From: Camellia lanceoleosa
Taxonomy: Eukaryota; Streptophyta; Magnoliopsida; Ericales; Theaceae
NCBI GenBank assembly: GCA_025200525.1
Contig: CM045758.1
Coordinates: forward strand, 194,034,463 to 194,098,462
Direction: 5' to 3'
DNA: 64,000 nucleotides
Shown: positions 11,571-64,000 of the stretch, piece after piece
Layout of the letters: every line of letters starts with the position of its first letter
Position numbering within the stretch: position 1 is the first letter of the stretch
Position numbers and translations under genes: made by a program
Notes under the pieces: model-generated
What the model was told of the DNA's origin: nothing
Databases searched by the model: none
Seen by the model: only the letters and a program-made list of their open reading frames with translations

Positions 11571-11577
11571 AGAGCAC

Positions 11578-14440: not shown

Positions 14441-14499
14441 TAAAATTGATCTGGAGAAAGCGCAGTGAAGCGAAAAGTTATGCGGATGTCGAGAAGACG

Positions 14500-14985: not shown

Positions 14986-14987
14986 AT

Positions 14988-14997
14988 AAGGAGGAGG
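14988..14997 (+). promoter_or_regulatory. Polypurine tract of nested chromovirus
   Basis: AAGGAGGAGG immediately precedes the 3' LTR, the expected position for the plus-strand primer. Confidence 0.75.
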
Positions 14998-45131: not shown

Positions 45132-45802
45132 AATCACTAGTTCTATCACCACCTTTGCGTACATCAATCTCAGACAAACTCAAACGACCTCTGCGTTCAT
45201 GAATAACTAAACCACTTTCCCTTAAACCTCCTAACAACAAATCTCTTCACCTCTTCGGTAAATCGACAGACTTAGTCCGTGTCAGAATCGGAATGGCCTT
45301 TATTGGAGGACAATGCCAAACATCAACATTTTCATTAGTATATTTTTTAGATAACACAACAATAGATGGGGCACTCATTTATGAATTTTCTGGCATGTCA
45401 CTCGTAAAATACTTCAGATACCCCTTCATTTTACAATACGTAATCCCTCTTTTAATATTCAAATTTTCAAGTTAATACTTTACCATCTAGGGCACTTGTT
45501 TGTCATTAATTGAACAATAACCATTCCTATAATAGACTAACTCGCATTGACAATCCATAGGGAAAAGAAACCACGCCTGGTAATGAGATTACCATCTAAC
45601 CTCCGATGATAAACATTCACTCTGACCAACCCACTAGCATTGGGTGTGCAAAGGGGGGGAATATTTTATCAACCTTAATACTCTTTTGTTTGTATCTTAA
45701 CCTCAACTGCGAAAATAAATTAGGCAACGCAAATTCAATACAACTGAAATCATTTACTGAAACACCTTCAACAACACTAGTATTTATATCGTCCACCTCC
45801 AT
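45132..45802 (-). pseudogene. BC1-like movement protein, copy A (3'-truncated)
   Basis: It starts at ATG 45802 (MEVDDINTSVVEG), 44 bases after the coat protein stop, the position of a movement protein in citlodaviruses. The first 61 codons are open to a TGA near 45617; later segments, including the KMKGYLK region also seen in copy B, lie in other frames. The coding sequence is cut at about 45132, where host DNA begins, so the C-terminal ~50 residues found in copy B are absent. The gene product would move viral DNA between cells; this copy cannot be functional. Confidence 0.62.
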
Positions 45803-45845
45803 TCAAAACCTGAACATTACAAATAAGAATACATAAATTATAATT

Positions 45846-46592
45846 CTAAACAGTCTTAAAGTACATTTGATTCCTTAAAGTAATTTTACATTCATTTCCA
45901 CTAACAGTAGCAGCCATTAAATATATGGCACCCTTTTGAATACTTCCAACATTTCCCAACAGCGTATCTTTGTAGTCTGTCCAAACATCAACTGGGAAGA
46001 ACCAGTTCACAACTTCTATACTGTGACGAACGTACTCTTTGTCCCTACCATCAATGACCTTGAATCCCATTTTCTTTAGCATCCGAAATCGGTCGGACTA
46101 GTCAGGATAAAAAATTTAGGTCTCTGGATTGCACTCACCAACTCCAATAAATATCTTGTCAGGTGTGTGGATGGAATCAGACGGACTATTATCACTTATG
46201 ACGAAAAACAAAACGCGGTAGACCATAGCTTCGTCTTTAGCATCTTGTCCCATTTGAACATTCTTAATTAATTTTATACCCTTAACCACGATCTTGTCTG
46301 ATTGACGGTCACATCTCTTATTACCCAACCCAATACCATTCAGCAATCTCGCCACACCTTTATTATCAAATTTAGCATCCCTTAATTGTTCATCGTACAA
46401 TTATAACTTTCTTACTTCCCTCCTAGTCTTCTTAATATATCGGGGAATATTTTGTACGTACCGTCTACGTACATACGCCGCCTTAAAAGATGTACGACCA
46501 CGGTAACTACACTTATAACCACTGGCTGCCGGTGTCCTTAACCGGCGGTACGCAAAGGGAGTCTGATACTGGCTGCTCATTACTCCTTTCAT
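45846..46592 (-). pseudogene. Geminivirus coat protein, copy A
   Basis: 248 codons, with a basic N-terminus (YRGRTSFKAAYVRRRY) and a central LLNGIGLGNKRCDRQSDK region. It ends YLMAATVSGNECKITLRNQ, in line with geminivirus coat proteins of about 250 residues. The frame is continuous but for three stops: TAA near 46399 and two near 46113 and 46098. The start is taken at 46592 (MKGVMSS), or five codons in at MSSQYQ. The protein forms the twinned particle and binds single-stranded DNA. Its start overlaps the V2-like ORF. Confidence 0.85.
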
Positions 46593-46842
46593 TTTTTAAA
46601 AAACAATCCAAATCTTTTATCTTGCAAATTCTGCGGATTCTCTTATTTCTGCTAACCCTTCCATTTAAACACCTTAGCTTTGATATTTTTTTCCTTTACT
46701 TCTCGTACCCACGAACAAACTTCGCAGGAGCTAACCGTCGCCTCTCTTCCCACATTCTTATTTGCCACATCAAAAAACAATCTACACACATTTGAGTGAA
46801 CTGGCCGTAATTCTCGAGATACTCTTCTAAGGAGTACAACAT
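46513..46842 (-). pseudogene. V2-like (pre-coat) ORF, copy A
   Basis: A 109-codon frame starting MLYSLEEYLENYGQFTQM, overlapping the coat protein start by 80 bases in another frame, exactly where geminivirus V2 lies. It is basic and cysteine-containing (RRICKIKDLDCF). One internal stop (near 46692) breaks it. The same frame exists in copies B and D. Geminivirus V2 proteins suppress silencing or aid movement; identity here rests on position and conservation between copies, not on a diagnostic motif. Confidence 0.45.
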
Positions 46843-47165
46843 TATATACCTAAACAATCAACAAAAAAAGAAGACTGAAAATGAGGGACGAAATAAGGTA
46901 CTAGGAAACAACTTTACCACAATTGCTATCCCACTGCAAAAGCATATTCCTCTATACCATCAAATGTGTTCTAGTACCAAATAAATAACAAAACTACCTA
47001 GTGATTAAGTACGAAGATTCCCTATGCAAAATCATTCAAACACATTTATTTTTTTTCTTTTGCTTTATGTCTATCATTCTGCAAGAATATTTGCTTTACA
47101 GCTACGCAAACCACCAGAAACACGAGACGTGTATCGCACTATCCGACAAAAGAATCAAAAGTACT

Positions 47166-47185
47166 CACACCTGGGCCCGGGTGTG
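47166..47185. promoter_or_regulatory. Palindrome in viral intergenic region, copy A
   Basis: CACACCTGGGCCCGGGTGTG is a 20-bp palindrome with one mismatched pair, 70 bases upstream of the origin stem. Related forms occur in copy B (near 53286), C (near 54566) and D (near 63006). It could be a Rep-binding or promoter element. A CACGTG motif follows at 47209-47214. Confidence 0.5.
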
Positions 47186-47256
47186 ACTTCCTTTTAACCC
47201 CATCCATACACGTGTCTATAAATACAATAATGGACGGCCTAGATCAGTGGGAGGGG

Positions 47257-47282
47257 GGCGCTGGTAATATTAATACAGCGCC
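47257..47282 (-). other. Viral origin hairpin, copy A
   Basis: Stem GGCGCTG/CAGCGCC (7 bp) around a 12-base loop. On the minus strand the loop holds the geminivirus nonanucleotide TAATATTAC (47264-47272), where Rep nicks to start rolling-circle replication. The strand is the coat-protein-sense strand, as expected. Confidence 0.92.
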
Positions 47283-47378
47283 ACCCTAGTCATACCACTC
47301 AAACTATTCACATCGGATTTTTTAACTAATAGAGAAGCCTTGTATGGCTGGTGTGAGTTCACTGTTTACCACTACAAA

Positions 47379-48525
47379 ATGCCTCGCCAAGCCTTTTTCC
47401 GTTTTTATACCAAAAATGTTTTCCTCACCTACCCACAATGCCCATGCCCAAAAGAACAACTCTTGGAACTCCTTCAATCCTTAGTCCAACTAGCCTGTAA
47501 GCCATACTACATACTTGTCGCAAGAAAGCTCCACAAAGATAGAAACCCTCACATTCATGCCATGGTTCAATGCACAAAGAAGATCCAAACTACCAACCTG
47601 AGATTTTTCGATCTCACCGGAACCAACGGCATAATCTATCATCCAAATATAGAAAAACTCCACTCTCTGACAGCAAATCGATAGTATATACAGAAAGGAG
47701 GCGACATCGTAGAATGGAAAGAATTTTTATCGAAGGGAAAAGTCCTTCGAAGAACAGAGACGAACTCTAGAGGGGTATACTTGTAGAAGCAGAAATGAAA
47801 GAACAATTCTTTGCACTGTGCAAAGAAAGATATCCTACCGATTACCTCACAAAATACCCCCAATTAAAAACATTTTCGAGGCATCAATACAAAAGAGAGA
47901 GGCTCCCATATACTAGCACCTTTAATTCATTTCCTTTATTAAATGAAGAAGCAAAAGAATGGGCAAAAAATAATATTTTGTTTGTAAGTCGAAATTTTGT
48001 ACAATACGAGTTATGTCAAAATTGTTGTCTCTCCGTTTAAAGGAAAGACGACTGGATTAGATTAGGGATACACAAAAATAATATCAATAATTTATATACT
48101 GACGAATAACTCTCCTCTTCCTCTGATAACAGGAACCAAAACAACGGCCCATCCACCCAATCTCTCTCTACCTCGAAGGACCCTCAAGAATAGGAAAAAC
48201 CGCCTGGGCTAGAAGTCTCGAACGACACAATTACTTTTCCGACAGAATAAGCTTCAAGAACTACGATCAAGACGCCGTCTACAACGTCGTAGACGACATC
48301 AAATACTCAACAGTCCCTACCGAATTAATGAAAAATTTAGTAGGTTGCCAAAAAGACTTCTATGTATTTGTTAAATTCCAACCAAATCTCACTATTAGAG
48401 GTGGAATTCCTTGTATTATACTAACTAATGGGGATAGTAGTTGGTTAGATGCAATGTCCCCAAAAATGAGAGAATGATTTGATGTTAATGTAACCACTAT
48501 CAAGATTAATGAAAAAATTTATTAG
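47379..48525 (+). pseudogene. Geminivirus Rep, copy A
   Basis: Starts MPRQAFFRFY at ATG 47379; an in-frame ATG at 47340 is upstream. Motif I is FLTYPQC, motif II HIHAMVQ, motif III YIQKGGD (catalytic Tyr near 47686). The helicase part has Walker A GPSRIGKT, Walker B-like NVVDDI and ILTNGDSSW. A stop sits just before motif III (near 47683), a one-base loss lies near 47720 relative to copies B-D, and more stops follow. A GTAAGT at 47984 and an AG at 48131 define a 149-nt phase-0 intron joining the two halves in one frame. Rep nicks and unwinds viral DNA. This copy is the only one with the full helicase half in the window. Confidence 0.85.
47984..48132 (+). other. Candidate Rep intron, copy A
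   Basis: Donor GTAAGT, acceptor ACAG, 149 bases, phase 0 on both sides. The Walker A frame downstream is reached only by removing it. In copy D the corresponding interval (63823-63971) is also 149 bases. Reading through instead gives an alternative C-terminus, as for RepA. Confidence 0.6.
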
Positions 48526-48586
48526 TTTTATTTATGAAACCACTCAAACTTTTATTTACTTACTACATTTCCCTTATCATCAACTA

Positions 48587-51500
48587 TTACATTTGAGTCA
48601 CATCACTATTTTTTACACTCATTATTACATTTCGTAAAACATCAGAAAATTTTGCTCGATCCATAACAACTAATACTCTAAGATCAACTTCTTCTTTGCT
48701 AATACCAGCCTCCGAAATCGACGGACCATGATCAATATCACTAGTTCCATCACCACCTTTGCGTACATCAATCTTAAACAAACTCAGACGACCTCTGCAT
48801 TCAGGAATAACTAAACCACTTTCCCCCAAACCTCCTTACAACAAATCTCTTCACCTCTTCGGCAAACCCACAGACTTAGTTTGTGTCAGAATCGGAATGG
48901 CCTTCGTTGGAGGACAATGCCAAACATCAACATTTTCATTATTATATTTTTTAGATAACACAACAATAGATGGGGTCCTCATTTGTGAATTTTCTGGCAT
49001 GTCACTCGTAGAATACTTCAGATAGCCCTTCATTTTACAATACGTAATCCCCCTTTTAATATTCAAATTTTCAAGTTAATACTTCACCATTCATGGCACC
49101 TGTATGTCGTTAATTGAACAATAACCATTCCCATAATAAACTAACTAGCATTGAAAATCTATTGGGAAAAGAAACTGTCACGATCCAAACCCGCCCCTAA
49201 GGGTTTAGCATCGTAACCGGCCAGTAATCCGTGATTACCGAAGGCCTGAATAACAATAATAACAGTAATACAATATAAAAGGGACTGGCGGAAGCCAAAC
49301 AGTAATAACAGGATATCCAATGAGCTGTGAAAACCTGAATAGAAAAAGACTTTTATGGACTAATCCACATTCATAACCATAAACATATATACATATCAGA
49401 TACACATAACATACGGGTTAGGGATCCAATCCCTTCAACATAACTGTACAATCAAGTCTTAAACATTCGATACATAACAGAGACAAAAGGGTGAATCTGA
49501 AACACCCCCAAAATAGCCTTGGCTCGAGTAGACTCGAAACCTCGAAGTGAGGCACAACGGTTGGCTGGACAAAACATAAGCTTAACTCGACGCTTCTAGC
49601 TTCTAGTTTCAGTCTGGTGCCTGGCCACCTACATACATATATAAACTGTGAGCTAAAGCCCAGTGAATAACAAATGCATAAAGGGGTTAAGAATGAATGT
49701 CCTTTCAGTAATTAAAACAGTTAATTACATCTGTAGATCAGTTATTCAATCAGTGACTCATAGTTCATGTCATAACAGTCGTTTAGAAACCATAGCAATC
49801 ATAGGTGGTACATCCAATAGCGAGCGGTAATAGACAAGAGTCCTTAGACCTTAATGGCCATCAAAGCGATGTGAAGAGTAATTCCAAACATTGGAACTGA
49901 CAGAGATATTAGTAACAGTAGCAGTAACAGTAACCATAACAGTAATAGTAAGTTGCTATGGATGCCACGAGTAGAGCTCATAAAATAGGACAAACATTCA
50001 TTCAGTAAACAATGTCACTTCAGAGAGCAGTGCAGTCGATCGTTCAAAAAATAATTATAATTGAACATATCTTTACAACATTGTTACTCACAGATTACTG
50101 GGCTATAGGCAAGCTAATCAGCGCACTCAGGTGCCAACCCTACACAGTTGCAGAATGAACATACACTAAATTACATACTCGGGATTAATAACTTAGCCCC
50201 TAACTTGACTTGGTGTGGTTCTATAACATTGTCCTCATTATGATGCTTTAAACATGGCTTAGGAATGCCTAGGATGGAATGAGGATGCAAAAATGTAATT
50301 AACAATATTTTTCAAAACTTGCTGAAAACAGGGATCTCGCTCGAGCGTAGCTTTCTCCGCTCGAACGAGCTTACCAAATGAGAGAGGTCGCTCGAGTGTA
50401 GACTCCCTCGCTCGAGCGATCTGCAAAAGTGTAAAAAGTACTGGTTGTTGAAATTTCCCGCTCGATGCTCATTCGAGCGTGAGACATAGTTTCTCGCTCG
50501 AGCGTAGGTCTCGTCGCTCGAGCGTACGTCTGCACACACAAAAACCTGAGAGCTTGCAATTTACGCTCGAGCCAGCATTCCGTTGCTCGAGCGAAAGTCT
50601 GAAAACAAAAGTAGTTGCTCGAGCATGGAATCCTTCGCTCAAGTGAGGAAGCCAAATTCTGGGTTTTCTAGATTTGCTCCTAAAGCTCAAACCATGGATC
50701 AAACATTTCAAAACTCATCATTTTGGGCCAATTTTCTGGAAAACACTTAGAAACTCATAATACAACATGATTTAAAGACCATTTCATAAAATCAAAGCCC
50801 AAAAGTATACCAATTGAACACAAATTCAACCCAAAATTCAAGAACATGATGTGATTATGCCATGCATGCATTTATTTGAATTCATAGCTTCCAATACATG
50901 ATCCAAAGAGACATTCTTTTCAAAAACATGATGAATTCTTAGATTACAACTATAATCTAGACATGCATGGAAAAATTTCATGAAAACAACTTCAAAATTC
51001 CATGGTATGGACATGCATGCATAAATTCACTAGACTTCCTTAAATTCTAGCTCAATTAACCCATGACCTCACCTATTTCATATACATACAAGTTCTAGAT
51101 GGCTCAAAAATAAGATTAAAAGGTTAAGCTCTTAGCTAGGCTTCTCAATCAAACTTCACCTAAGCTAAAACCTTGAGCAATGTAGACAAGTCTCCAAAAT
51201 TTCCTTCAATTTCCTCTCAAAATCAAGCAATTCTCTAATTGAATTCAATTTTCCCCCATTCTCCCTCTCTCTCTCTCACGGTTTGGGTCTTGAGGATGGA
51301 AAAATGGTGTCATCAAAAAGATGAAATCAAACAAATGGCCTTGTAAACGCCCACTAATGGCAATTGTGTAATAAACTCAAGCTAATGTAATTTAACATTA
51401 TTTATTCCAATTTAATAATTTCAAATCAAATTTTAATTAAACCTACCATAAAATCATATAAATCCTAATTAGCATATAACACTAATCAATTTTTGAATTG

Positions 51501-51919
51501 GTTGCCGATAAGGCTTTCAATTCGCAATTCGAAATTAAAACATGAACAGATCATTCTGTAACAAACAGATAAAAATACAATTAAAACAACACACTCATGC
51601 AATCAGTTTAGGAGTTCATCTTAATCAATTACTTATCATGCTCAATCACAAATTAACGCTAATCAAAGGTGAGGATTGTCACAGAAACCACGCCTGGTAA
51701 TGAAATTACCATCTAACCTCCGATGATAAACATTTACTCTGACCAACCTACTGGTATTAGATGTGCAAATGGGGGGAATATTTTATCAACCTTAATACTC
51801 TTTTGTTTGTATTTTAACCTCAACTATGAAAATAAATTAGGCAACGCAAGTTCAATACAACTGAAATCACTTGCTGAAACACCTTCAACAACACCCATTT
51901 TTATATCGTCCACCTCCAT
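48587..51919 (-). pseudogene. BC1-like movement protein, copy B, split by a solo LTR
   Basis: It begins at ATG 51919 and ends at a TAA at 48587. Without the 2513-bp insertion it is about 820 bases (about 273 codons), close to geminivirus movement proteins of about 280-300. The middle reads KMKGYLKYSTSDMPENS and RTPSIVVLSKKYNNENVDVW, resembling the conserved region of begomovirus BC1. The C-terminal 80 codons (48587-48829) are open: MGESGLVIPECRGRLSLF ... DVLRNVIMSVKNSD. Several stops and frame changes occur. In begomoviruses such a gene is on the second component; here it shares a unit with Rep and coat protein, as in citlodaviruses. Confidence 0.68.
49176..51683 (-). mobile_element. Solo LTR of a chromovirus-like element
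   Basis: 2508 bp in reverse orientation, starting TGTCACGATCCAAACCCG and ending GATTGTCACA, flanked by the 5-bp duplication GAAAC (49171-49175, 51684-51688). Its termini are related to the nested chromovirus LTR (reverse complement of GGGTCGTGACA). A CTCGAGCG palindrome cluster lies at 50338-50645. It has no internal region, so it arose by recombination between LTRs. ORFs inside (50312-50711) come from the palindrome cluster. Confidence 0.9.
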
Positions 51920-51962
51920 TCAAAACCTAAACATTACAAATAAGAATACATAAATTATAATT

Positions 51963-52707
51963 CTAAACAGTCTTAAAGTACATTTGACTCCTTAACGTAA
52001 TTTTGCATTCTTTTCCACTAACAGTAACAACCATTAAATATATGGCACCCTTCTGAATACTTCCAACATTTCCCAACAGCGTATCTTTGTTGTCCGCCCA
52101 AATATCAACTGAGAAGAACCGGTCCACAACTTCTATCCCATGACACACGTACTCTTTGTCCTTGCCCCAATGAGCTTGAATCTCATTTTCTTTAGCATCC
52201 AAAAACGGTCGGACTATTCAGGAACAATAATCCATGTCTCAAGATTACCCTCCCCAATTTCAATAAATATCTTGTCAAGTATGGAGACAGAATCTGACGG
52301 ACTAGTATCACTTATAACGAAAAACAATATGTGGTGGACCACAGCTTCGTCTTTAACATCTTGTCTCAATTGAACATTCCCCATTAATTTTATACCCTTA
52401 ACCAGGATCTTGTCTGATTGATGGTCACATCTCTTATTACCCAACTCAATACCATTAAGCAATCTCGCCACATATTTATTATCAAATTTAACGTCCCTTA
52501 ATTGTTCATCGTACAGCTGCAACTTCCTTACTCTCCTCTTAGTCTTCTTAATATATCAGGGAATATTCTGAACGTACCATCGGCGAACATACGCCGCCTT
52601 AAAAGGTGCACGACCATGGTAACTACGCTGATATCCACTGGCCGCCGGTGTCCTTGACCGGCGGTATGCAAGGGAGTCCGATACTGGATGCTCATTACTC
52701 TTTCCAT
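51963..52707 (-). pseudogene. Geminivirus coat protein, copy B
   Basis: Matches copy A in layout, from ATG 52707 to a stop at 51963. Lesions: one base missing near 52672 within the N-terminal basic part, a TGA near 52557, a TAG near 52217, and a frame change near 52165. The central block 52214-52522 (LLNGIELGNKRCDHQSDK) and the last 79 codons are open. It lies 43 bases upstream of the movement-protein start. Confidence 0.85.
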
Positions 52708-52957
52708 TTTTTATAAAACACTCCAAATCTTTTATCCTACAAATTCTACAGATTCTCTTACCTCTGTTAACCCTTCTGTTCAGACACCTTAGCTTTGATA
52801 ATTTTTCCCTCTGTTCCTCGTATCCACGAACAAACTTCGCCGAAGCTTACCGCCGCCTCTCCTCCCACAGTCCTATTTGCCCCATCAAAAAACGATCCAC
52901 ACACATTTGCGTGAACTACCCGTAATTCTCGAGATACTCTTCTAAGGAGTACAACAT
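52623..52957 (-). pseudogene. V2-like ORF, copy B
   Basis: Same position and start (MLYSLEEYLENYG) as copy A. A TAG occurs at codon 14, where copies A and D have CAG, and a frame change follows near 52845. A different frame gives 52767-52979, a shadow. Confidence 0.4.
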
Positions 52958-53373
52958 TGTATACCAAAACAATCAACAAAAAAAAAAGTCTAAAAATGAC
53001 GAAACAAGGTACTAGAAAACAACTTCACCACAATAGCTATCCCACTACAAAACCATATTCCTCTATACCATCAAATGTGTTATGGTACCAAATAAATAGC
53101 AAAGCTACCCCATGATTATATATAAAGATTCCCCATTCAAAATAATTCAATCACATTTATTTTCCCGTCTTTGCTTTATGTCTATCATTCTGTAAGAATA
53201 TTTACTTTACAGCTACGCAAACTACCAAAAACGCGACACGTGTATAACAATATCTAGCAAAGGAATCAAAAGTACTCACGCCACTCACATCTGGGCTCGG
53301 GTGTGGCTTCCTTTTAGCCCCATCCATACACGTGTCCATAAGTACAACAATAGACGGCCCAGATCAGCGGGAA

Positions 53374-53407
53374 GGGGGGCGCTAGTAATATTAATACAGT
53401 GCCCCCC
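53374..53407 (-). other. Viral origin hairpin, copy B
   Basis: Stem GGGGGGCGCT with AGTGCCCCCC (one G-T pair), loop with TAATATTAC on the minus strand at 53385-53393. The stem is longer than in copy A. Confidence 0.9.
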
Positions 53408-53490
53408 CCCTCACACCATTCACATCGGGTTTTTTAACTAATAAGAAGGCCTTGTACGGCTGGTGTGAGTTCACTGTTTACCACTACAAA

Positions 53491-54342
53491 ATGCCTCGCC
53501 AAGCCTCTTTCCGTTTTTATGCCGAAAATGTTTTCCTCACCTACCCACAATGTCCATGCCCAAAAGAACAACTCTTGAAACTCCTTCAATCCCTACTCCA
53601 ACTAGCCTGTCAACCATACTACATACTTATCGCAAGGGAGCTCCACGAAGATGGAAACCCTCACCTTCATACCATGGTTCAATCCACAAAGAAGATCCAA
53701 ACTACCAACCTGAGATTTTTCAACCTCACAGGAACCAACGGGAGGATCTATTATCCAAATATAGGAAAACTTCATTCTCTAACAGCAAGTCAACCGTACA
53801 TACGGAAAGGGGGCGACATCGTAGAATAGGGAGAATTTTCATCGAAGAGGAAAAGTCTTTCGAAGAATAGAAACGAACTATGGAGGGGAATACTTGCAGA
53901 AGCAGAAACGGATGAACAATTCTTTGCACTCTGTAAAGAAAGATGTCCCACTGATTACATCACAAAATAGCCCCAATTAAAAACATTTTCGAGGGATCAT
54001 TACAAAAGAAAGAGGCCCCCATATATTAGCCCTTTTAATTCATTTCCTTTCTTAAATGAAGAAGTAAAAATATGGGCATAAAATAATATTTTGTTTGTAA
54101 GTCAAAATTTTGTACAACACGAGTTATGTCAAAATTACTATCTCTCCGTTTGGAGAGAAGGCGACTGGATTAGATTAGGGATATATAAAAATAATGTCAA
54201 CAATTTATATATTAATGAAAAACTCTCCTCCTCCTCTAATAAAGGGAACAAGAACAGCGGCCCATCTACCCGTTATCCCTCTACCTCGAAGGATCCTTAA
54301 GAATAGGCAAAACCACCTAGGCCAAAAGTCTCAACGACACAA
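53491..54342 (+). pseudogene. Geminivirus Rep, copy B, truncated after Walker A
   Basis: It starts MPRQASFRFY; motif I FLTYPQC, motif II HLHTMVQ, motif III YIRKGGD. Codons 1-112 are open, then a TAG replaces a Trp codon near 53826, with more stops near 53968 and 54079. A GTAAGT donor is at 54097. The unspliced frame runs to 54300 (SVWREGDWIRLGIYK). Helicase sequence ends about 35 bases past Walker A, where the copy is joined to intergenic region of copy C at about 54340. Confidence 0.85.
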
Positions 54343-54344
54343 TA
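54337..54344. other. Deletion junction Rep-B / intergenic region C
   Basis: Sequence is Rep-like up to CACAAT and intergenic-like from the same CACAAT, since Rep copy A has GACACAATTAC and the intergenic region of copy D has CCACAATAGC. The 6-base shared sequence marks a microhomology junction that removed about 2.3 kb of a unit. Confidence 0.7.
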
Positions 54345-54646
54345 GCTATCTCACTGCAAAAGCATATTCATCTATACCATCAAATGTGCTCTGGTACCAA
54401 ATAAATAGGAAAACAAAATAATTCAAACATATTTATTTTCCCGTCTTTGCTTTATGTCTATCATTTTGTAAGAATATTTTCTTTACAAGCACGCAAACCA
54501 CCAGAAACGCGACACGTGTATCGCACTATCCGGCTAAGGAATCAAAAGTATTCACACCACTCATACTTGGGCCCGGGTGTGACTTCATCTTAACCCCATC
54601 CATACAAGTGTCCATAAGTACAACAATGGATGGCCCAGATCAGCGG
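54345..54646. other. Viral intergenic region, copy C (5' of insertion)
   Basis: Collinear with 47000-47250 of copy A and 62760-63095 of copy D. It includes the palindrome near 54566 (GGGCCCGGGTGTG) and ends with AGCGG, the target duplication of the LTR element. Confidence 0.75.
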
Positions 54647-56608
54647 TGTCACGACCCAAACCCGCGCCCGAGAAGGTTGGTATCGTAACTGGCCAGTAAT
54701 TTTAGATTACCACAGGTCTTTCCGTACAAAACATAAATAATCAGGGCTTGCGGAAGCGAAAACAAAGAAACTAATAGTCCAAAGAGCTGTGTATTTATAT
54801 GAACAAATATTTACATGCCAAAAATGTTAATTTACCCACTTACATACATAACATGCAACCAAAAGATCATATACAAAACATAGGCTCACGCCACAGCTAT
54901 ACAACCAAAAACAAAGCTCGTACAGCCTTCCAGGCCTAGCCCTAACTCGGAGGCACCAAAACACCAGGTAGGCTTCAAAACGGCGGCTCGGCTCGAACTC
55001 CACCTAGGCTTGACTCCCAGAATGCTCACCTATAAATACATATATACAAACAATGAGCTAAAGCTCAGCAAGTAACATTAAAGTAAAGGGGGTAGTGAAC
55101 GAAGTCCAACTTTTCATAAATCCGTAATAAATCAATCATAATCATAATTATAATCATCATAAAACATACATAATAGCATACTCCACAGAACATAACATTT
55201 GTCATCCAACGACTACAGTAACCGGTCCCGGACACCGATTAAACACATACCGAGATCTCGTAACTAGTCATGAGCCTACATTTTCATGCCGTCCCCCATG
55301 ACTTCAAACTATCCGTGGATGCCATACTAGATTCGCAAATAGGACATTCGTTCACAGAAAACATTATCATTTCAAAATCATACATAACATAGCACTTTGA
55401 AACATAGTTCATAATAACATATCTTTACAGAAATGTTACTCACAGTGGGTTTCCAAAACCGGTTGCACGGTCTTCGCGTTTTGACCTGCAAATACCATCA
55501 TTAATAACACAATTCCTTAATACACATCGTCATAGAACCAAATAGTTCATGCCATACTATTCTTTCTTAACTCTATTCCATGTTCATAAGATGCTAAACG
55601 ATACAAATAACATGTGAAAATCAAGTAATTCATGCCATATATGAACTGAATGCAACTTCCAAAATTTTCTTGAAAATAAGTCCCCCGCTCGAGCGCCACT
55701 TTGTCCGCTCGAGCGGACTGTACAATTTTCCAAAACTGCTGGGAGGTCGATTTTCATGCTCGAGCGGGAGTACCTCCGCTCGAGCGGACCATGCAAAATC
55801 CGAAATTCTGAACTTTTCCAAAGCTTTAACCTTTCCTTTATCAAAAACAACTTTAAAATGATGGAAACCAAGCCCCAAAACACTTGAAAACCACTTGATT
55901 TAGACCTTACAACTTCTCAACAAAACCCACATGCATCATATACAAGATCAAACCATGAATTGAGGTGAATAATCATAACTATGCATATAAAAGCTTCATT
56001 TCTTCATATCCATGGAGGTTCTCCCTCAAATACCAAATATAAACATAAATCATCAATTTATGCCATATATGCTCAAATTAAACATATTTTCTCTTCAATC
56101 CACTTATTTACCATGAGGTCATGCATGAATCAACCTTATTTCAAGAAATTAGAGAGGTATTCTTACCTTGATTGCTTAAATGAAGAAGATAAACTGATTT
56201 CCCTTTTCTTTACTCTTCTTCCTCCCTTGGTTCTCTCTTCCATGAATTCTTCTCTCTCTCTCTCTTTCTAGATTTTTCTTCTCTTGTTTTTTTGAGTCAA
56301 GCAATGGGTCAATATCCTTATCTTAAAGCATATATATATAATTGTGCCATAATCTTGAGCCAAACAAGGCTTTACGAATCAGACGAAATTCAGTCCTCAA
56401 TTTATTGTCCCAAATGGTTCTAAAAATTCCCGGTATCACATAGGCGTGTTCAATTTCATTTTCTGATCCCATTATGGTCATCAATTTCAGTTCCAAAGTT
56501 ATAGTTCCAACAGATATTTTTCCAATTCAAACAGATATTCTTCAATTAATTCGCATAAACTCATAATTAATTACTGATAAATATGACACATGTTTTGGGG
56601 TCATTACA
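54647..56608 (-). repeat. 3' LTR (left) of gag-only element
   Basis: 1962 bp. It contains CTCGAGCG palindromes at about 55686-55785 and a CTCTCTCTCTCT run near 56252. The short ORFs at 55584-55883 are products of the palindrome region. Confidence 0.88.
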
Positions 56609-56621
56609 CTCTCCTCACCTT
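56609..56621 (-). promoter_or_regulatory. Polypurine tract of gag-only element
   Basis: On the minus strand AAGGTGAGGAGAG directly precedes the 3' LTR. Confidence 0.7.
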
Positions 56622-56999
56622 AAGAAGTTTGGTCCTCCAAACTTTACTTATCCTGGTATAATCTCACTCAGAAATCTTGATCATATATGATTGTTCATTC
56701 CGGAGCCATTGAATAATTCACAAGGTGTCATCACACAAAGAGGACAACTCGACGGTTCTATTCCGTTATTCAACATGATAAGGTAGTTCGTATGTCCATT
56801 CCATAACAATGAAGACAGTATCATAGCAGTCAAACACATAATGAACATATTTTACATATACTGAAGTCATCTAACAAGTTCCATAGCATTCAATTCAAAG
56901 GTAGTAACGTAGATATAACAATCCATAGCAAAGGTAATAGCAAAGGTAAATTTGTTCCATCATAGTCATAGTCAATTTGTTTCATGTCGTTCACATTCA

Positions 57000-58248
57000 A
57001 TTGGTGTCACATAATTTACGTATGATTTGTTCCGTCCCATTCACATATTCTACAATTTCCCATCGCATAGGTAACATAGCCAACATAACAATAGATAGGA
57101 AAATCATACCTGCATTCGCTTTTCCAGTAGTCTGTGTCTTTTCTGAAACTAGGGTGAAAACCCTTCCTTGCCTCAATGTATTCCCCTCAGGAGTAGCTGT
57201 TACGGTTGTCTTTGGTGTCATTGTTGAGTTAACTCCACTAGTAATGGGTCTTTCATTTCTTGAGTAAACTTGTGGACAAGCTTTGGCTATGTGTCCTTTC
57301 TGTCCGCATTTGTAACAAACTCCAGATCCACGCCAACAAATACCCCAATGTTGCTTCACACACTCCTTACAAGTAGGCATGCCCACACTTCCACTACTTC
57401 CCTTCTTTATATTCTCACTAATACCTGAAGTCAAATTCTCATTCACAGAGCCCATGGATTCACTAAATGTTTTTACTTTCTATTTTTTGAATTTCTTACT
57501 TTCTGCTTCGATCATTGCTGTTAGCTTGCACATTTTCAAGGTAGCAATATTTGTTTCAGCCATCAAGGCTCTGTCAAGTACATCAACATACTTTTCTAAT
57601 TTCAACACATTCACCCTGTCAAGTACCTCAACATGTAAGCCACCCTCAAATTTCCTTGCTTTCTTGTATTCTGTATCAATCATATGTGGAGCATAACGGG
57701 CTAATTCAGTAAATTTCGCTTCGTACTCCGCTACTGACATAGTACCTTGCTTCAACTGTTCAAATTCAGATATTTTCCTGTCTTGCATGCATTGTGGAAA
57801 ATTTTTTCATAAAACATTCCTTTGAATCGATCCCATGTTAAGTCCCTATGCTCACCTCGTACGAGCATCCACCATCTTCGAGCTTCTTCTGTCAGAGTAA
57901 ACGTTGCTAACAAAACTTTATAGACATCTGTACACGGAAACACTTCAAAAATCTTTTCAGTTTCAAGTACCCATGCCTCCGTTTTAATGGTTCAATTCCC
58001 CCTGCGAATTCCGGTGGTTTAAGTTTCTTGTATTTCTGTGTCAAAGTGATAACATCATCATTATTAATCGGTTCCATTTGCACAAGTGGCGGAGGAGGAG
58101 GCGGAAATGGTTGTCTCTATTGTTGTTGGTTTTGTTCTTGTTGTTGTCTTACCAACCCAGTTAAAGTTTCCACCATTCTTTCTAACCGATCTAGTCTAGC
58201 ATTAGAAGATTTTGTCTCATCTACATTCCTTGCATTAGTGTTCTCCAT
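57000..58248 (-). pseudogene. Gag of gag-only element
   Basis: From ATG 58248 (MENTNARNVDETKSSN), then TLTGLVRQQQEQNQQQ and a TAG. Frame changes follow, with EEARRWWMLVRGEH (about 57890-57850), then the open block 57788-57480 (EFEQLKQGTMSVAEYEAKF, ARYAPHMID) and, after one stop, 57455-56997 with a CCHC zinc knuckle CYKCGQKGHIAKAC and a RVFTLVSEKT end. It stops where protease would start. The domain series is that of chromovirus gag. Few lesions, so it may have been active recently, using partners from an autonomous element. Confidence 0.8.
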
Positions 58249-58447
58249 TGGTCTCTAGAACCCATAGCAGATAGAATATTTCATTCTCAACATAATAGTT
58301 CCTCTGTTGTCTCATCATTTACAGTTCTAGTCTCTTTATATTCAAAAACACACGCACACATACACATATGCTCATGCCATGCTCTACTTCTTGTCTAGGA
58401 CACCCTACAGCTCTTATGGACACGTGTGTGGGTAAATTAACTCGTGC

Positions 58448-58459
58448 GCTCTGATACCA
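58448..58459 (-). promoter_or_regulatory. tRNA-Met primer binding site of gag-only element
   Basis: The plus strand reads GCTCTGATACCA, i.e. TGGTATCAGAGC on the coding strand, three bases after the 5' LTR. Identical to the site at 10386. Confidence 0.9.
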
Positions 58460-58462
58460 TTC

Positions 58463-60416
58463 TGTCATGACCCAAACCCGCCCTGAGAAGGTTGGCATCG
58501 TAACCGGCCAGTAATTCTAGATTACCACAGGCCTTTTCGTACAAAACATAAATAATTGGGGCTTGCAAAAGGGAAAACAAAGAAACTAATAGTCCAAAGA
58601 GCTGTGCATTTATATGAACAAACATTTACATGCCAAAAATGTTAATTTACCCACTTACATACATAACATGCAACCAAAAGATCGTATAAAAAACATAGGC
58701 TCACGCCACAGCTATACCACCAAAAACAAAGCTCGTACGACCTTCCAGGCCTAGCCCCAACTCGGAGGCACCAAAACACCGGATAGGCTTCAAAACGGCG
58801 GCTCGGCTCGGACTTCGCCTAGGCTTGACTCCCAGAATGCTCACCTATAAATACATATATACAAACAATGAGCTAAAGCTCAACAAGTAACATTAAAGTA
58901 AAGGGGGTAGTGAACGAAGTCCAACTTTTCATAAATCCGTAATAAATCAATCATAATCATAATTATAATCATCATTGAACATACATAATGGCATACTCCA
59001 CAGAACATAACATTTGTTGTCCAATGACTAGAGTAATCGGTCTTGGACACCGATTAAACACATACCGAGATCTCGTAACTAGTCATGAGCCTGCATTTTC
59101 ATGCCGTCCCCTATGACTTCAAACTATCCGTGGATGCCATACTAGATTCGCAAATAGGACATTCGTTCACAGAAAACATTATCATTTCAAAATCATACAT
59201 AACATAGCACTTTGAAACATAGTTCATAATAACATATCTTTACAGAAATGTTACTCACAGTGGGTTTCCAAAACCGGTTGCACGGTCTTCGCGTTTTGAC
59301 CTGCAAATACCATCATTAATAACACAATTCCTTAATACACATCGTCATAGAACCAAATAGTTCATGCCATACTATTCTTTCTTAACTCTATTCCATGTTC
59401 ATAAGATGCTAAACGATACAAATAACATGTGAAAATCAAGTAATTCATGCCATATATGAACTGAATGCAACTTCCAAAATTTTTCTGAAAATAAGTCCCC
59501 CGCTCGAGCGCCACTTTGTCCGCTCGAGCGTATATTCAATTAAAGCTGGGGAGGTTGATTTTCATGCTCGAGTGGGAGTACCTCCACTCAAGCGGACCAT
59601 GCAAAATCCGAAATTCTGAACTTTTCCAAAGCTTTAACCTTTCCTTTATCAAAAACAACTTCAAAATGATGGAAACCAAGCCCCAAAACACTTGAAAACC
59701 ACTTGATTTAGACCTTACAACTTCTCAACAAAACCCACATGCATCATATACAAGATCAAACCATGAATTGAGGTGAATAATCATAACTATGCATATAAAA
59801 GCTTCATTTCTTCATATCCATGGAAGTTCTCCCTCAAATACCAAATATAAACATAAATCATCAATTTATGCCATACATGCTCAAATTAAACATATTTCCT
59901 CTTCAATCCACTTATTTACCATGAGGTCATGAATGAATCAACCTTATTTCAAGAAATTAGAGAGGTATTCTTACCTTGATTGCTTAAATGAAGAAGATAG
60001 CTTGATTTCCCTTTTCTTTACTCTTCTTTCTCCTTTGGTTCTCTCTTTCACGAATTCTTCTCTCTCTCTCTCTTTCTAGATTTTTCTTCTCTTGTTTTTT
60101 TGAGTCAAACAATGGGTCAATATCCTTATCTTAAAGCATATATATAAAATTGTGCCATAATCTTGAGCCAAACAAGGCTTTACGAATCAGACGAAATTCA
60201 GTCCTCAATTTATTGTCCCAAATGGTTCTAAAAATTCCTGGTATCACATAGGCATGTTCAATTTCATTTTCTGATCCCATTATGGTCATCAATTTCAGTC
60301 CCGAAGTTATAGTTCCAACAGATATTTTTCCAATTCAAACAGATATTCTTCAATTAATTCGCATAAACACATAATTAATTACTGATAAATATGACACATG
60401 TTTTAGGGTCATTACA
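58463..60416 (-). repeat. 5' LTR (right) of gag-only element
   Basis: 1954 bp, highly similar to the left LTR, with a short divergent patch near 59530-59545 next to the CTCGAGCG motifs. Confidence 0.88.
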
Positions 60417-60426
60417 AGCGGGATAG

Positions 60427-60456
60427 GGGGCACTGGTAATATTAATACAGCGCCCC
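60427..60456 (-). other. Viral origin hairpin, copy C
   Basis: Stem GGGGCACTG with CAGCGCCCC (one mismatch), loop with TAATATTAC on the minus strand (60436-60444). It lies just 5 bases from the LTR element's target duplication. Confidence 0.88.
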
Positions 60457-60541
60457 TCCAGTCATACCATTCACACCGGGTTTTTTAACTAATAGGGAGG
60501 CCTTGTACAACTGGTGTGAGTTCACTGTTTACCACTACTAA

Positions 60542-61357
60542 ATGCCTTGTCAAGCCTCTTTCTATTTTTATGCCAAGAATGTTTTCTTCACCTATCCACA
60601 ATGCCCATGTCGAAAAAAACAACCCTTGGAACTCCTCCAATCCCTTTTCTAACTAGCCTGTCAGCCATACTACATACTTGTCGCGAGGAAGCTCCATGAA
60701 AATGGAAACCCTCATCTTCATGCCATGGTTCAATGCACAAAGAAGATCCAAACTGCCAACCTAAGATTTTTCGATCTCACTGCAACCAACGGGAAGATCT
60801 ATCATCCAAATATAAAAAAACTATATTCTCCAACAGTAAGTCAACAGTATATATAGAAAGGGGGCGACATCGTAGAATGAAAAGAATTTTCATCGAAGGG
60901 GAAAAGTCTTTCGAAGAACAAAGACAAACTCTAGAAGGGAATACTTGTAGAAACAGAAACGGATGAACAATTCTTTGCACTCTGCAAAGAAAAATGTCCC
61001 ACCGATTACGTCACAAAATACTCCCAATTAAAAACATTTTCGAGGAATCATTACAAAAGAGAGAGGCCCCCATATACTAGCCCCTTTAATTCATTTCCTT
61101 TCTTAAATGAAGAAGTAAAAAAATAGACAGAAAATAATATTTTGTTCATAAGTCAAAATTTTGTACAATACGAGTTAAGTCAAAATTGTTGTCTCTCCGT
61201 TTGGAGGAAAGACAACTGGATTAGATTAGGGATACATAAAAATAATATCAACAATTTATATATTGATGAAGAACTCTCCTCATCCTCTGATAACAGCAAC
61301 CAAAACAGCGACCCATCCACCTAATCTCCTTCTACCTCGAAGGACCCTCAAGTACAG
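60542..61357 (+). pseudogene. Geminivirus Rep, copy C, truncated at Walker A
   Basis: Starts MPCQASFYFYAKNVFFTYPQC, so motif I has one change (FFTYPQC). A TAA stops it near codon 36. Motif II survives (HLHAMVQ); before motif III is a TAG. The intron donor is lost (CATAAGT instead of GTAAGT). Sequence ends within Walker A (CCTCAAGTACAGGC) and is joined to the movement-protein/coat region of copy D. More decayed than A or B. Confidence 0.8.
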
Positions 61358-61365
61358 GCAAACTC
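61355..61365. other. Deletion junction Rep-C / movement gene D
   Basis: Rep sequence (ACCCTCAAGTACAGGCA) switches to AACTCGCATTGACAATCCAC, found near 45539 in copy A. About 0.94 kb of the unit is missing, covering the helicase half of Rep and most of the movement gene. Only one or two bases are shared at the join. Confidence 0.7.
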
Positions 61366-61636
61366 GCATTGACAATCCACAGGGAAAAGAAACCACGTCT
61401 GCAGACTGTTATTACCATCTAACCTCCGATCATAAACATTTACTCTGACCAACCCGCTGGCATTGGGTGTGCAATGAGAGGGAATATTTTATTAATATTT
61501 TATCAACCTTAATACTCTTTTGTTTGTATCTCAACCTTAATTGAGAAAATTAATTAGGCAACAGAAGTTCAATACAACTGAAATCACTTGCTGAAACACC
61601 TTTAACTGCACCAGTTTTTATATCGTCCGCCTCCAT
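61363..61636 (-). pseudogene. BC1-like movement protein, copy D (N-terminal part only)
   Basis: Begins at ATG 61636 and runs 274 bases to the junction; it contains the first ~90 codons, with stops and a short insertion (ATTAATATTTT near 61490) relative to copies A and B. The remaining two thirds were lost in the deletion. Confidence 0.6.
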
Positions 61637-61679
61637 TCAAAACCTGAACATTACAAATAAAAATACATAAATTATTATT

Positions 61680-62412
61680 CTAAATAGTCTTAAAGTACAT
61701 TTGACTCCTTAAAATAATTTTGCATTCTTTTCCACTAACAGTAGCAGCCACTAAATATATAGCACCCTTCTGAATACTTCCAATATTTCCCAACAACGTA
61801 TCTTTGTTGTCCGTCCAAACATCAACTGGAAAGAACTAGTCCAAAACTTCTATCCTGTAACGAACGTACTTTTTGTCCTTACCCCCAACGAGCTTGAATC
61901 TCATTTTCTTTAGCATCCGAAAACGGTCGGACTGGTCAAAATCAACAATCCAGGTCTCAAGATTACTCTCCCCAACTCCAATAAATATCTCGTCAGGTAT
62001 GGGGATGGAATCTGACGGACTATTATCACTTATGACGAAAAACAATATGTGGTAGACCACAGCTTCGTCTTTAGCATCTTGTCCCAATTGAATATTCCCA
62101 ACTAATTTTATACCTTTAACCACGATCTTGTCTGATTGATGGTCACATCTCTTATTACCTAACTCAATACCATTAAGCAATCTCGCCACACATTTATTAT
62201 CAAATTTAACATCCCTTAATTGTTCATCGTAAAGCTGCAACTTCCTTACTTCGCTCTTAGTCTTCTTAATATATTGGAGAATATTTTGTACGTACCGTCT
62301 GCATATACGCTGCCTTAAAAAGTGCACGACCACGATAACTACGCTCATATCCACTGGCCGCCGGTGTTTTTGACCGGTGGTATGCAAGGAGAGTCCAATA
62401 CTGGTTGCTCAT
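61680..62412 (-). pseudogene. Geminivirus coat protein, copy D
   Basis: The best preserved coat gene of the window. The upstream start codon of copies A and B is ATA here, so the first ATG is 62412 (MSNQYW). A frame change near 62300 separates the N-terminus from a 150-codon open block (62290-61836, with RRYVQNILQYIKKTKSE and LLNGIELGNKRCD). One TAG near 61836 follows, then the conserved end (AIYLVAATVSGKECK) to a stop at 61680. Confidence 0.85.
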
Positions 62413-62674
62413 TATTCCTTTTATTTTTAATAAAACACTTTAAATCTTTTATCCTACAAATTTTGCAGATTCTCTTACCTCTGCTAACCCTTCTGTTCAG
62501 ATACCTTAGCTTTGATATTTTTTCCCTTTGCTCCTCGTACTCATGAACAAACTTTGCTGGAACTAACCGCCGCCTCTCTTTCCACATTCTTATTTGCTAC
62601 GTCAAAAAACAATCTACACACATTTGAGTGAACTGCCCGTAATTCTCGGAATACTCTTCTAAAGAGTACAACAT
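62345..62674 (-). pseudogene. V2-like ORF, copy D
   Basis: 110 codons, with one stop (TAG near 62601). The 80 codons from 62587 are open (MWKERRRLVPAKFVHEYEEQ ... KICRIKDLKCF). The frame overlaps the coat protein start. Conservation of this frame in three copies supports a real viral gene. Confidence 0.45.
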
Positions 62675-63095
62675 TGTATATCAAAACAATCAACAAAAAA
62701 AGAAGACTGAAAATGAGGGACAAAACAAGGTGCTAGAAAACAATTTCACCACAATAGCTATCTCACTGCAAAAGCATATTCCTCTATACCATCAAATGTG
62801 TTCTGGTACCAAATAAATAGCAAAACTACCCCGTGATTAAGTACAAAGATTTCCCATTCAAAATAATTCAAACACATTTATTTTCCTACCTTTACTTTAT
62901 GTCTATCATTCTGCAAGAACATTTGCTTTAAAAGCACACAAATCGCAAAAAACGCGACACGTGTATCGCACTATCTGGCAAAGGAATCAAAGTACTCATC
63001 TCACTCACACTTGGGCCTGGGTGTGACTTTATTTTAACCCTATCCATACACGTGTCCATAAGTACAACAATGGACGGCTTAGATCACCGGGGAGA

Positions 63096-63121
63096 GGCGC
63101 TGGTAATATTAATACAGCGCC
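63096..63121 (-). other. Viral origin hairpin, copy D
   Basis: Stem GGCGCTG/CAGCGCC, loop with TAATATTAC on the minus strand (63103-63111), identical in stem and loop to copy A. Confidence 0.92.
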
Positions 63122-63216
63122 CCCCAATCACACCACTCACACCATTCACATCGGGTTTGTTAACTAATAGGGAGGCCTTGTACGGCTGGTGTGAATTCAC
63201 TGTTTACCACTACAAA

Positions 63217-64000
63217 ATGCCTCGCCAAGCCTCTTTCCATTTCTATGCCAAGAATGTTTTCCTTACCTACCCACAATACCCATGCCCAAAAGAACAACTC
63301 TTGGAACTCCTCCAATCCCGTCTCCAACTAGTCTGTCAGCCATACTACATACTTGTCGCAAGGGAGCTCCACGAAGATGGAAACCCTCACCTTCATGCCA
63401 TGGTTCAATGCACAAAGAAGATCCAAAGTACTAACCGAGATTTTTCAATCTCACTGGAACCAACGGGAGGATCTATCATCTAAATATAAAAAAACTCCAT
63501 TCTCCAACAATAAGTCGCCAGTATATACAAAAAGGGAGCGACATCGTAGAATGTGGAGAATTTTTATCGAAAGGGAAAAGTCCCTCGAAGAACAGAGACG
63601 AACTCTGGAGGGGAATACTTGCAGAAACAGAAACGGAGGAACAATTCTTTTCACTTTGCAAAGAAAGATGTCCCACCGATTACGTCACAAAATACCCCTA
63701 ATTAAAAACATTTTCGAGGGATCATTACAAAAAAGAGAGGCCCCCATATACTAGCCCCTTTAATTCATTTTCTTCTTAAATAAAGAAGTAAAAAAATAGG
63801 CAAAAAAATAATATTTGTTTTTGTAAGTCAAAATTTTGTACAATACGAGTTATATCAAAATTGTTGTCTCTCCATTTGGAGGGAAGACGACTGGATTAGA
63901 TTAGGGATACACAAAAATAATATCAACAATTTATATACTAACGAAGAACTCTCCTCCTCCTCTGATAACAGGAACTAGAACAGCGGCCCATCCGCCTAAT
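63217..64000 (+). pseudogene. Geminivirus Rep, copy D (runs off the window)
   Basis: Starts MPRQASFHFYAKNVFLTYPQY: motif I ends in Tyr instead of Cys. Motif II HLHAMVQ is intact. One base is missing near 63433 (CCGAG where copy A has CCTGAG), giving a stop near 63481; motif III YIQKGSD lies in the restored frame downstream. Stops follow near 63700 and 63782. Intron donor GTAAGT at 63823 and acceptor AG at 63970 are both present. The helicase half is beyond the right edge. Confidence 0.83.

What the first reader, a model, noticed from the sequence alone, without database searches (positions are those of the whole stretch)
45132..64000. Tandem endogenous geminivirus array with citlodavirus-like organisation
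Four origins and repeated gene blocks lie head to tail, with a 3.61-kb period between the first two origins after subtracting the solo LTR. Each unit combines Rep, coat protein, a V2-like ORF and a BC1-like movement protein, with no TrAP/REn-like ORF. Known endogenous geminiviral elements are mostly begomovirus-like Rep pieces; a multi-copy array with structural and movement genes of this type looks unusual and may record a lineage not known as a living virus.
Basis: partly seen in the sequence, partly recalled or inferred. Interest (0 to 1): 0.95.

Follow-up and report, generated by a model that had tools for sequence, protein, structure and literature searches.

The report
Fossil geminivirus array in tea genome
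A stretch of Camellia (tea family) chromosome holds several decayed copies of an old plant virus joined end to end, one of hundreds of such sites of a kind already reported in tea; the way the copies are broken and joined suggests that the viral DNA was pasted in by random end joining rather than by jumping like a transposon.

Summary
The array is real. Four origins, Rep and coat pieces and a BL1-type movement gene lie head to tail from 45133 past the window end, about 23 kb in all, with a unit of 3604 bp. Only the first unit is complete. A solo LTR and an LTR retrotransposon sit inside, each with a 5-bp target duplication. The host is a Camellia. The kind is published: tea carries 918-967 Rep loci, clustered, many near coat or movement domains, one Rep clade sister to citlodaviruses (PMC7758297). 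What I add concerns formation. Sampled copies diverge almost as a star; copies in one locus are as far apart as copies in different loci; shared stop codons do not follow kinship; of 42 joins 18 are same-strand and 24 opposite, none shared between loci; ends do not favour the nick site. One locus pair is an old local duplication. I read this as random end joining of multimeric viral DNA over a short time, then decay. Helitron-like spread, proposed for yam, is not supported in this sample. Coat relatives occur on 3.3-3.9 kb metagenome contigs.

The parts
45133..64000 (+). Endogenous geminivirus array inside the window; continues to about base 4107 of the next stretch (L031), some 23 kb in all, interrupted by two retroelement insertions
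45133..48736 (+). First unit, the only complete one, 3604 bp; used only as separate short probes
47264..47272 (-). Origin nonanucleotide in a hairpin loop, unit 1
53385..53393 (-). Origin nonanucleotide, unit 2; predicted fold differs from the other three
60436..60444 (-). Origin nonanucleotide in a hairpin loop, unit 3
63103..63111 (-). Origin nonanucleotide in a hairpin loop, unit 4
47274..47684 (+). Open piece holding the Rep catalytic domain, unit 1 (Gemini_AL1, E 4.9e-26)
47771..48040 (+). Open piece holding the Rep central domain, unit 1 (Gemini_AL1_M, E 1.5e-10)
47984..48132 (+). Intron-like gap in Rep (GTAAGT ... AG); GTAAGT or ATAAGT at the start in the four aligned array copies; inferred, no transcript seen
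48130..48477 (+). Open piece with a Walker-A-like motif, position of the Rep helicase domain; no family match above cut-off
53395..53829 (+). Open piece holding the Rep catalytic domain, unit 2 (E 3.3e-28)
62932..63483 (+). Open piece holding the Rep catalytic domain, unit 4 (E 9.5e-19)
46116..46400 (-). Coat protein piece, unit 1 (Gemini_coat, E 4.6e-7, below the curated cut-off)
45846..46097 (-). Coat protein piece, unit 1 (Gemini_coat, E 8.6e-7, below the curated cut-off)
51963..52555 (-). Two overlapping open coat pieces, unit 2 (by repeat homology to unit 1)
61836..62408 (-). Coat protein piece, 190 aa (Gemini_coat, E 4.2e-12, above the curated cut-off)
48851..49075 (-). Movement protein piece (Gemini_BL1, E 1.2e-9); a longer piece in L031 1126-1620 scores E 1.8e-25
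52767..53024 (-). V2-position open frame without any family match
49176..51683 (.). Solo LTR inserted in unit 2, 5-bp target duplication GAAAC
54647..60416 (.). LTR retrotransposon inserted in the array, 5-bp target duplication AGCGG; LTRs 54647-56608 and 58463-60416, 96.1% identical; zinc-knuckle piece at 56997-57479
54338..54343 (.). Internal join: unit position 48231 to 46918, 6 nt shared
61361..61362 (.). Internal join: unit position 48198 to 45539, 2 nt shared

Best explanation
This is one locus of a large endogenous geminivirus family of Camellia, most likely the 'Clade 3' family already published for tea. A geminivirus with a 3.6-kb circle (Rep with an intron-like gap, coat, BL1-type movement protein) replicated in cells that gave rise to the germline, and made multimeric head-to-tail double-stranded DNA. 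Broken multimers were joined to each other and to chromosomal breaks by end joining with little or no shared sequence. This left patchworks at many sites: some, like this one, all head to tail, others with inverted blocks. It happened at a great many sites from a nearly uniform source over a short time, with some early local duplication of finished loci. Since then the copies have decayed, near neutrally, and taken retrotransposon insertions. Shown here: the anatomy, the junction counts, the near-star divergence, the stops that do not follow kinship, the later insertions, and one duplicated locus. Inferred: the viral (rather than re-mobilised endogenous) source, the cell type, end joining as the pathway, and the shortness of the episode. 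I think this array has no protein-level function today; a small-RNA role is possible and untested.
For: Domains by Pfam. Hundreds of copies: four probes give 493, 512, 514 and 510 first-look candidates, of which 40 each were scored; 160 of the listed places (three short extra matches left out) form 110 clusters, with hits on all 15 of C1-C15. In seven pieces with 18-39 copies, mean pairwise divergence is 0.094-0.128; within-locus means (0.079-0.138) are like between-locus means (0.093-0.128); the spread is 0.0154-0.0271 against 0.0174-0.0207 for a binomial star. 80-93% of tree length is terminal; the 2 clades with support of at least 0.95, over seven trees, are both within one locus. Of 23 stop sites shared by two or more copies, 1 has sharers closer than random at p<0.05. 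43 joins were listed, 19 same-strand and 24 opposite, p 0.54 (one same-strand join, in L007, is a merging artefact); 137 block ends, KS p 0.30 against uniform. No join is shared between loci (42 joins, 19 loci). The unit join is unbroken in 20 copies at 16 of 29 loci, window included. Larger flank homologies between the 30 loci compared trace to an LTR family with 9367 candidates or to the window's own retrotransposon.
Against: L006 and L026, 52 kb apart on C7, are collinear and share an edge with flank homology of about 80%: one locus was duplicated after insertion, and its copies are 8-11% apart, as far as copies of unrelated loci. So divergence alone does not tell duplication from separate insertion. 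The star is not perfect: terminal fraction 0.80-0.93 against 0.94-0.98 in star simulations, and the spread exceeds the binomial by 30-40% in two of seven pieces. Sites varying in three or more copies lean to third codon positions (104, 83, 135; p 0.002), but singletons lean too (205, 168, 227; p 0.012) and the two do not differ (p 0.47). Coat and movement pieces are mostly free of stops, 52 of 65, Rep pieces 33 of 86; why they differ was not tested. Outer ends are not quite uniform (Rayleigh p 0.006, centred near 48544; arc scan p 0.13). A few short flank matches of 119-159 nt (L037 with the window array, L006 with L042) are unexplained. The sample is biased: copies most like the window, and five of the ten 10-kb loci picked because they held two or more hits. 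I could not place Rep or coat in a tree of genera, so 'Clade 3' rests on gene set and host.
Confidence: 0.65

Rival explanations
1. Rep-driven, Helitron-like spread: after one integration, Rep nicked its own origin and copied the unit to new sites, as Filloux et al. 2015 suggested for yam elements.
For: The array units keep an origin motif, three of four in a clear hairpin; the yam paper lists Helitron-like features (PMC5014472, section 31 read).
Against: Of 40 outer ends 1 lies within 50 nt of the nonanucleotide, 1.1 expected; of 137 block ends 6, 3.8 expected. Joins are in both orientations. Caveat: copies were found with probes that must be present, so lone ends next to a probe are under-sampled, but a full unit with both ends at the nick would have been found.
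Confidence: 0.06
2. One or a few integrations, then dispersal inside the genome by segmental duplication or by capture in other transposable elements.
For: L006 and L026, 52 kb apart, are a duplicated locus with diverged copies. A 512-nt duplication in L031 has arms 2.3% apart in the movement piece. Two L040 coat pieces cluster.
Against: Among the 30 loci compared, the larger flank matches are retroelement LTRs, apart from the L006/L026 pair and its duplicate contig L022. No internal join is shared between loci. Stops are not shared by kin. Outer ends coincide within 10 nt in 6 pairs, about 4.5 expected.
Confidence: 0.2
3. Episomal or contaminating virus, or a misassembled repeat.
For: Tandem repeats are a common place for assembly error.
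Against: Units differ by about 7-24% piece by piece; two retroelements sit inside with 5-bp target duplications; the array has non-matching DNA on both sides.
Confidence: 0.03
4. A kept, useful array: transcribed copies feed small RNAs that silence related viruses, or Rep is kept in fusion transcripts with host genes.
For: Published for Camellia: Rep-HSP70 co-transcripts with some sites under purifying selection, and high cytosine methylation (PMC7758297, passages).
Against: Codon-position counts show only a mild third-position lean, the same for singletons and shared variants; most Rep pieces hold a stop (53 of 86); no expression data at hand. This could hold for a few loci and not for this one.
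Confidence: 0.06

Closest known systems
Camellia sinensis endogenous geminiviral elements, Rep Clade 3 (Sharma et al. 2020, PMC7758297; sections 3.1, 3.3, 3.4, 3.6, 3.7 and passages seen)
   Same: Host genus, hundreds of copies in hotspots, Rep with coat and movement genes, TAATATTAC origin; C. sinensis gene models are the nearest named proteins (Rep piece 84%; full-domain coat models 80-85%).
   Different: Their k-mer assembled unit is 4.6 kb; the circle here closes at 3604 bp in 20 copies at 16 of 29 loci. They state that how and why clusters form remains to be determined; I saw no junction analysis in the sections read.
Citlodavirus (for example citrus chlorotic dwarf associated virus, camellia chlorotic dwarf-associated virus)
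   Same: Monopartite circle larger than in other monopartite genera, Rep and RepA with an intron, large movement gene (PMC11053556, passages).
   Different: Citlodavirus coats are described there as nearest to begomoviruses; the tea coat was reported to group with grabloviruses (data not shown in PMC7758297). I could test neither by tree.
Dioscorea endogenous geminiviruses EGV1 and EGV2 (Filloux et al. 2015, PMC5014472; passages and section 31 seen)
   Same: Tandem units with an origin hairpin, many copies.
   Different: 2.6-kb begomovirus-like units without a detectable coat gene; a Rep-driven spread was proposed there.
Endogenous rice tungro bacilliform virus-like sequences (PMC526188; abstract and one section seen)
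   Same: Rearranged segments of a circular viral genome at many sites.
   Different: A pararetrovirus, with preferred ends and AT-rich flanks reported; no strong preferred end is seen here.

Membership tests
Camellia endogenous geminivirus, Clade 3 | Host is Camellia | tested here: met
   Nearest named proteins are C. sinensis gene models; 3.0 Gb with hits on 15 large contigs. The species is not settled.
Camellia endogenous geminivirus, Clade 3 | Rep, coat and movement genes with a TAATATTAC origin in one element | tested here: met
Camellia endogenous geminivirus, Clade 3 | Rep groups with Clade 3 in a tree of genera | not testable with these tools
   No full-length reference Reps were returned; reading broken Rep through is barred
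Citlodavirus | Circle larger than in other monopartite genera (one member is 3918 nt in PMC11053556) | tested here: met
   Unit 3604 bp; that other members are near 3.6-3.8 kb is recalled
Citlodavirus | Large BL1-sized movement gene on the virion strand | tested here: met
   Gemini_BL1 E 1.2e-9 in the window and 1.8e-25 in L031, minus strand like the coat; full length not read
Citlodavirus | Spliced Rep plus RepA | tested here: inconclusive
   Intron-like gap in four aligned array copies; no transcript
Citlodavirus | Coat and Rep fall inside the genus in trees | not testable with these tools
   No named geminivirus coat was returned
Begomovirus | TrAP and REn genes present | tested here: not met
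   No AL2 or AL3 match in the 9 plus-strand frames scanned
Begomovirus | Rep close to begomovirus Reps | tested here: not met
   Best begomovirus 45% over the catalytic domain, curtovirus 41%, mulcrilevirus 38%; that members of one genus are much closer is general knowledge
Helitron-like mobile element | Fixed ends at the nick site | tested here: not met
   1 of 40 outer ends within 50 nt, 1.1 expected

The most novel reading that the evidence does not exclude
The tea-lineage genome records an integration storm: hundreds of separate germline insertions of broken multimers of one nearly clonal geminivirus within a short time, some millions of years ago, from a group that still has living, unnamed members seen as genome-sized contigs in metagenomes. 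That would make endogenous geminivirus abundance a matter of repeated insertion during infection rather than of copying within the genome.
Probability: 0.33. Interest if true: 0.72.

Novelty: new member of a known kind. Interest (0 to 1): 0.45.

Why it matters
Two papers leave open how endogenous geminiviruses multiply and cluster in plant genomes: Sharma et al. say that how and why clusters form remains to be determined, and Filloux et al. suggest Rep-driven, Helitron-like spread. The junction and divergence data here speak against the second for this family and make the question answerable by a census in existing assemblies. Unit-length evidence (3.6 kb, not 4.6 kb) also bears on what the original virus looked like, and the coat relatives on genome-sized contigs hint that its kin may still circulate.

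Tried and rejected
Tried without result: two scans of IMG/VR with coat and Rep alignments (15 and 18 pattern matches, none confirmed); a structure model of the coat piece (mean pLDDT 33.8, not used further); a PDB search with the helicase piece (no meaningful match); PHROGs with the Rep piece and NCBIfam with five proteins (nothing meaningful). Considered and rejected: that the roughly 1.2-kb stretch beside several copies is a co-integrated second viral molecule; it has 9367 candidate places, some 14-15 kb apart, and looks like an LTR. Considered: a fifth origin at 44605; it lies outside the array, on the other strand, in an AT-rich hairpin, and one chance match is expected. The codon-position test was meant to separate viral from post-integration change and did not.
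Full report
What is there. The window lies at C1:194034463-194098462 of a 3.0-Gb assembly of 790 contigs. The best named protein matches of the Rep and coat pieces are C. sinensis gene models, and hits fall on all of C1-C15 and a few small contigs, so the host is a Camellia, very likely tea or a near relative; the species is not settled. From 45133 to the window end, direct repeats run in one orientation. Searching 300-nt pieces of the first unit against the window and the next 40 kb shows homology up to about base 4107 of the next stretch and none further. The unit is 3604 bp.

Genes. Pfam finds the Rep catalytic domain in three open pieces, the Rep central domain in one, the coat in three (two of them below the curated cut-off) and the BL1 movement protein in one window piece and two pieces of L031. 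Coat and movement lie on the minus strand, Rep on the plus strand, and the nonanucleotide on the minus strand next to the Rep 5' end, as expected for a geminivirus whose virion strand is the minus strand here. Between the Rep central and helicase pieces a GTAAGT ... AG gap (47984-48132) recurs in the aligned array copies, one of them with ATAAGT (the L035 row of that alignment was a wrong stretch of mine and is ignored). The V2-position frame has no match. No TrAP or REn match was found in the 9 plus-strand frames scanned.

Later events. A solo LTR (49176-51683, target duplication GAAAC) and an LTR retrotransposon (54647-60416, target duplication AGCGG) were inserted into the array. The two LTRs of the latter differ at 68 of about 1954 aligned sites (corrected 0.036), while viral pieces differ among copies by 0.10-0.14 corrected. 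So the copies began to diverge roughly three to four times earlier than this insertion. With recalled plant rates of 6.5e-9 to 1.3e-8 per site and year this means about 4-11 million years for the copies and 1.4-2.7 for the insertion; the rates come from no call.

Sample. One search with the Rep 5' probe scored 40 of 493 candidates and cut out 30 loci of 3.4 kb. I then fetched ten loci of 10 kb, five of them chosen because they held two or more hits. After dropping loci that lie inside others, one duplicate contig (L022, the same as L026) and stretches without copies, 29 loci including the window array remained for the junction counts. Copies that resemble the window most are over-represented.

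How the copies relate. In seven pieces with 18-39 copies each, pairwise divergence averages 0.094-0.128. The spread is near the binomial value for a star in five pieces and 30-40% above it in two. Copies in one locus are as far from each other as from copies elsewhere, except in the movement piece, where a local duplication pulls the mean down (0.079 against 0.104). Trees put 80-93% of their length on terminal branches; simulated stars give 94-98%. Two clades reach 0.95 support, both within one locus. Stop sites shared by several copies are not shared by close kin: 1 of 23 at p<0.05. Pieces without a stop number 33 of 86 for Rep and 52 of 65 for coat and movement (short pieces, insertions not counted; L022 left out). 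The copies seem to have started nearly alike and decayed independently. The codon-position test does not decide between sources.

A result against separate insertion. L006 and L026 lie 52 kb apart on C7, are collinear over the fetched 3.4 kb, and share their left edge with about 80% identity in 119 nt of flank. This is one insertion, duplicated. Its copies are 8-11% apart, no closer than copies of unrelated loci, so the duplication is old and divergence alone cannot separate the two models. Against wide duplication stand the joins: none of 42 is shared between the 19 loci that have them, and outer ends coincide within 10 nt in 6 pairs, 4.5 expected.

How they were joined. 43 joins between blocks less than 60 nt apart were listed, 19 on the same strand and 24 opposite; one same-strand join, in L007, is a merging artefact, which leaves 18 and 24. 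The two homologies overlap by 1-12 nt in 22 of these 42, meet exactly in 3 and are separated in 17; whether the overlaps exceed chance was not tested. Block ends are spread over the whole circle (137 ends, KS p 0.30; 6 within 50 nt of the origin, 3.8 expected). Forty outer ends include 1 within 50 nt of the origin, 1.1 expected. Outer ends lean towards the side of the circle opposite the origin (Rayleigh p 0.006), though an arc scan gives 0.13, and the probes used to find the copies may cause it. The circle is closed without a gap at the unit join in 20 copies at 16 of 29 loci, so 3.6 kb is the general unit in this sample. In the lists of best hits, 12 of the 34 clusters with more than one hit hold both strands; the window array, with 7 hits all on one strand, is the largest cluster, but four of its hits are the probes themselves.

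Explanation. Geminiviruses replicate by rolling-circle and recombination-dependent routes (a passage of PMC5014472); that these make multimeric head-to-tail DNA is general knowledge. Broken multimers joined at random to each other and to chromosome breaks give patchworks of this kind. The near-star and the stops that do not follow kinship mean that the source was nearly uniform and the period short compared with the decay since. I cannot exclude that the source was an endogenous copy released as a replicating circle; that would look the same.

What is known. Sharma et al. 2020 (PMC7758297; [quoted passage not shown] Their remark that alignment-based assembly was difficult fits the scrambled structure seen here. 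I searched the paper library six times and saw no later study of tea endogenous geminiviruses in the rows shown (some lists were cut); supplements could not be read, so whether this locus is listed there is unknown.

Living relatives. Four coat proteins from unnamed metagenome sources (P0010, P0011, P0014, P0016) form a group apart from the tea coats with 0.999 support in an unrooted tree; they are 75-87% identical to each other, and P0010 is 82% identical to the tea coat P0008. Three of them lie on contigs of at most 3324, 3873 and 3363 nt, the size of a geminivirus genome. They may be living viruses, endogenous copies in other plants, or named viruses absent from the library (no named geminivirus coat was returned at all). 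This is a lead only.

Verdict. A real and readable locus of a published kind of fossil virus. The mechanism data are the useful addition.

Noticed in passing
P0010, P0011, P0014, P0016: Coat relatives without a virus name from metagenomes, three on genome-sized contigs of 3.3-3.9 kb; possible living members of the same lineage.
   Followed up: partly
P0026, P0030, P0033: C. sinensis gene models with database names such as a 40S ribosomal, arginine-methyl-type or actin-related protein match the viral coat over part of their length: viral fossils apparently merged into host gene models.
   Followed up: no
P0032: A Rhododendron molle protein matches 19% of the coat query at 80% identity, so related elements may exist there too.
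   Followed up: no
L022 and L026: Copies on contigs C165 and C7 with identical flanks over 316 nt and near-identical copies: probably a duplicated haplotype contig in the assembly.
   Followed up: partly
L006 and L026, C7 at 115.99 and 116.05 Mb: A viral locus duplicated 52 kb apart, collinear with a shared edge, copies 8-11% diverged.
   Followed up: partly
L031 577-1089: A 512-nt tandem duplication inside the array, arms 2.3% apart in the movement piece, much younger than the array.
   Followed up: partly
L019 29-1234 and homologues in L003, L005, L015, L027, L038: An abundant LTR (9367 first-look candidates) that lies at or near the edge of several viral blocks, probably inserted into them.
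   Followed up: partly
40 outer ends: Outer ends lean to the side of the circle opposite the origin (Rayleigh p 0.006, arc scan p 0.13); may come from how copies were found.
   Followed up: partly
six coding pieces: Coat and movement pieces are stop-free far more often (52 of 65) than Rep pieces (33 of 86); codon make-up or selection not separated.
   Followed up: no
window 8180-15773, 11578-12093, 18417-19049: A retroelement region with repeats about 7.08 kb apart, an aspartyl protease piece between them and an RNase H piece beyond the second repeat.
   Followed up: no
window 35918-36823, 40201-40746, 22391-23245: A class 3 lipase piece, a Mutator transposase piece and a plant mobile domain piece upstream of the array.
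   Followed up: no
window 44605-44613: A fifth TAATATTAC on the plus strand, about 0.5 kb before the array, in an AT-rich hairpin; probably chance.
   Followed up: yes
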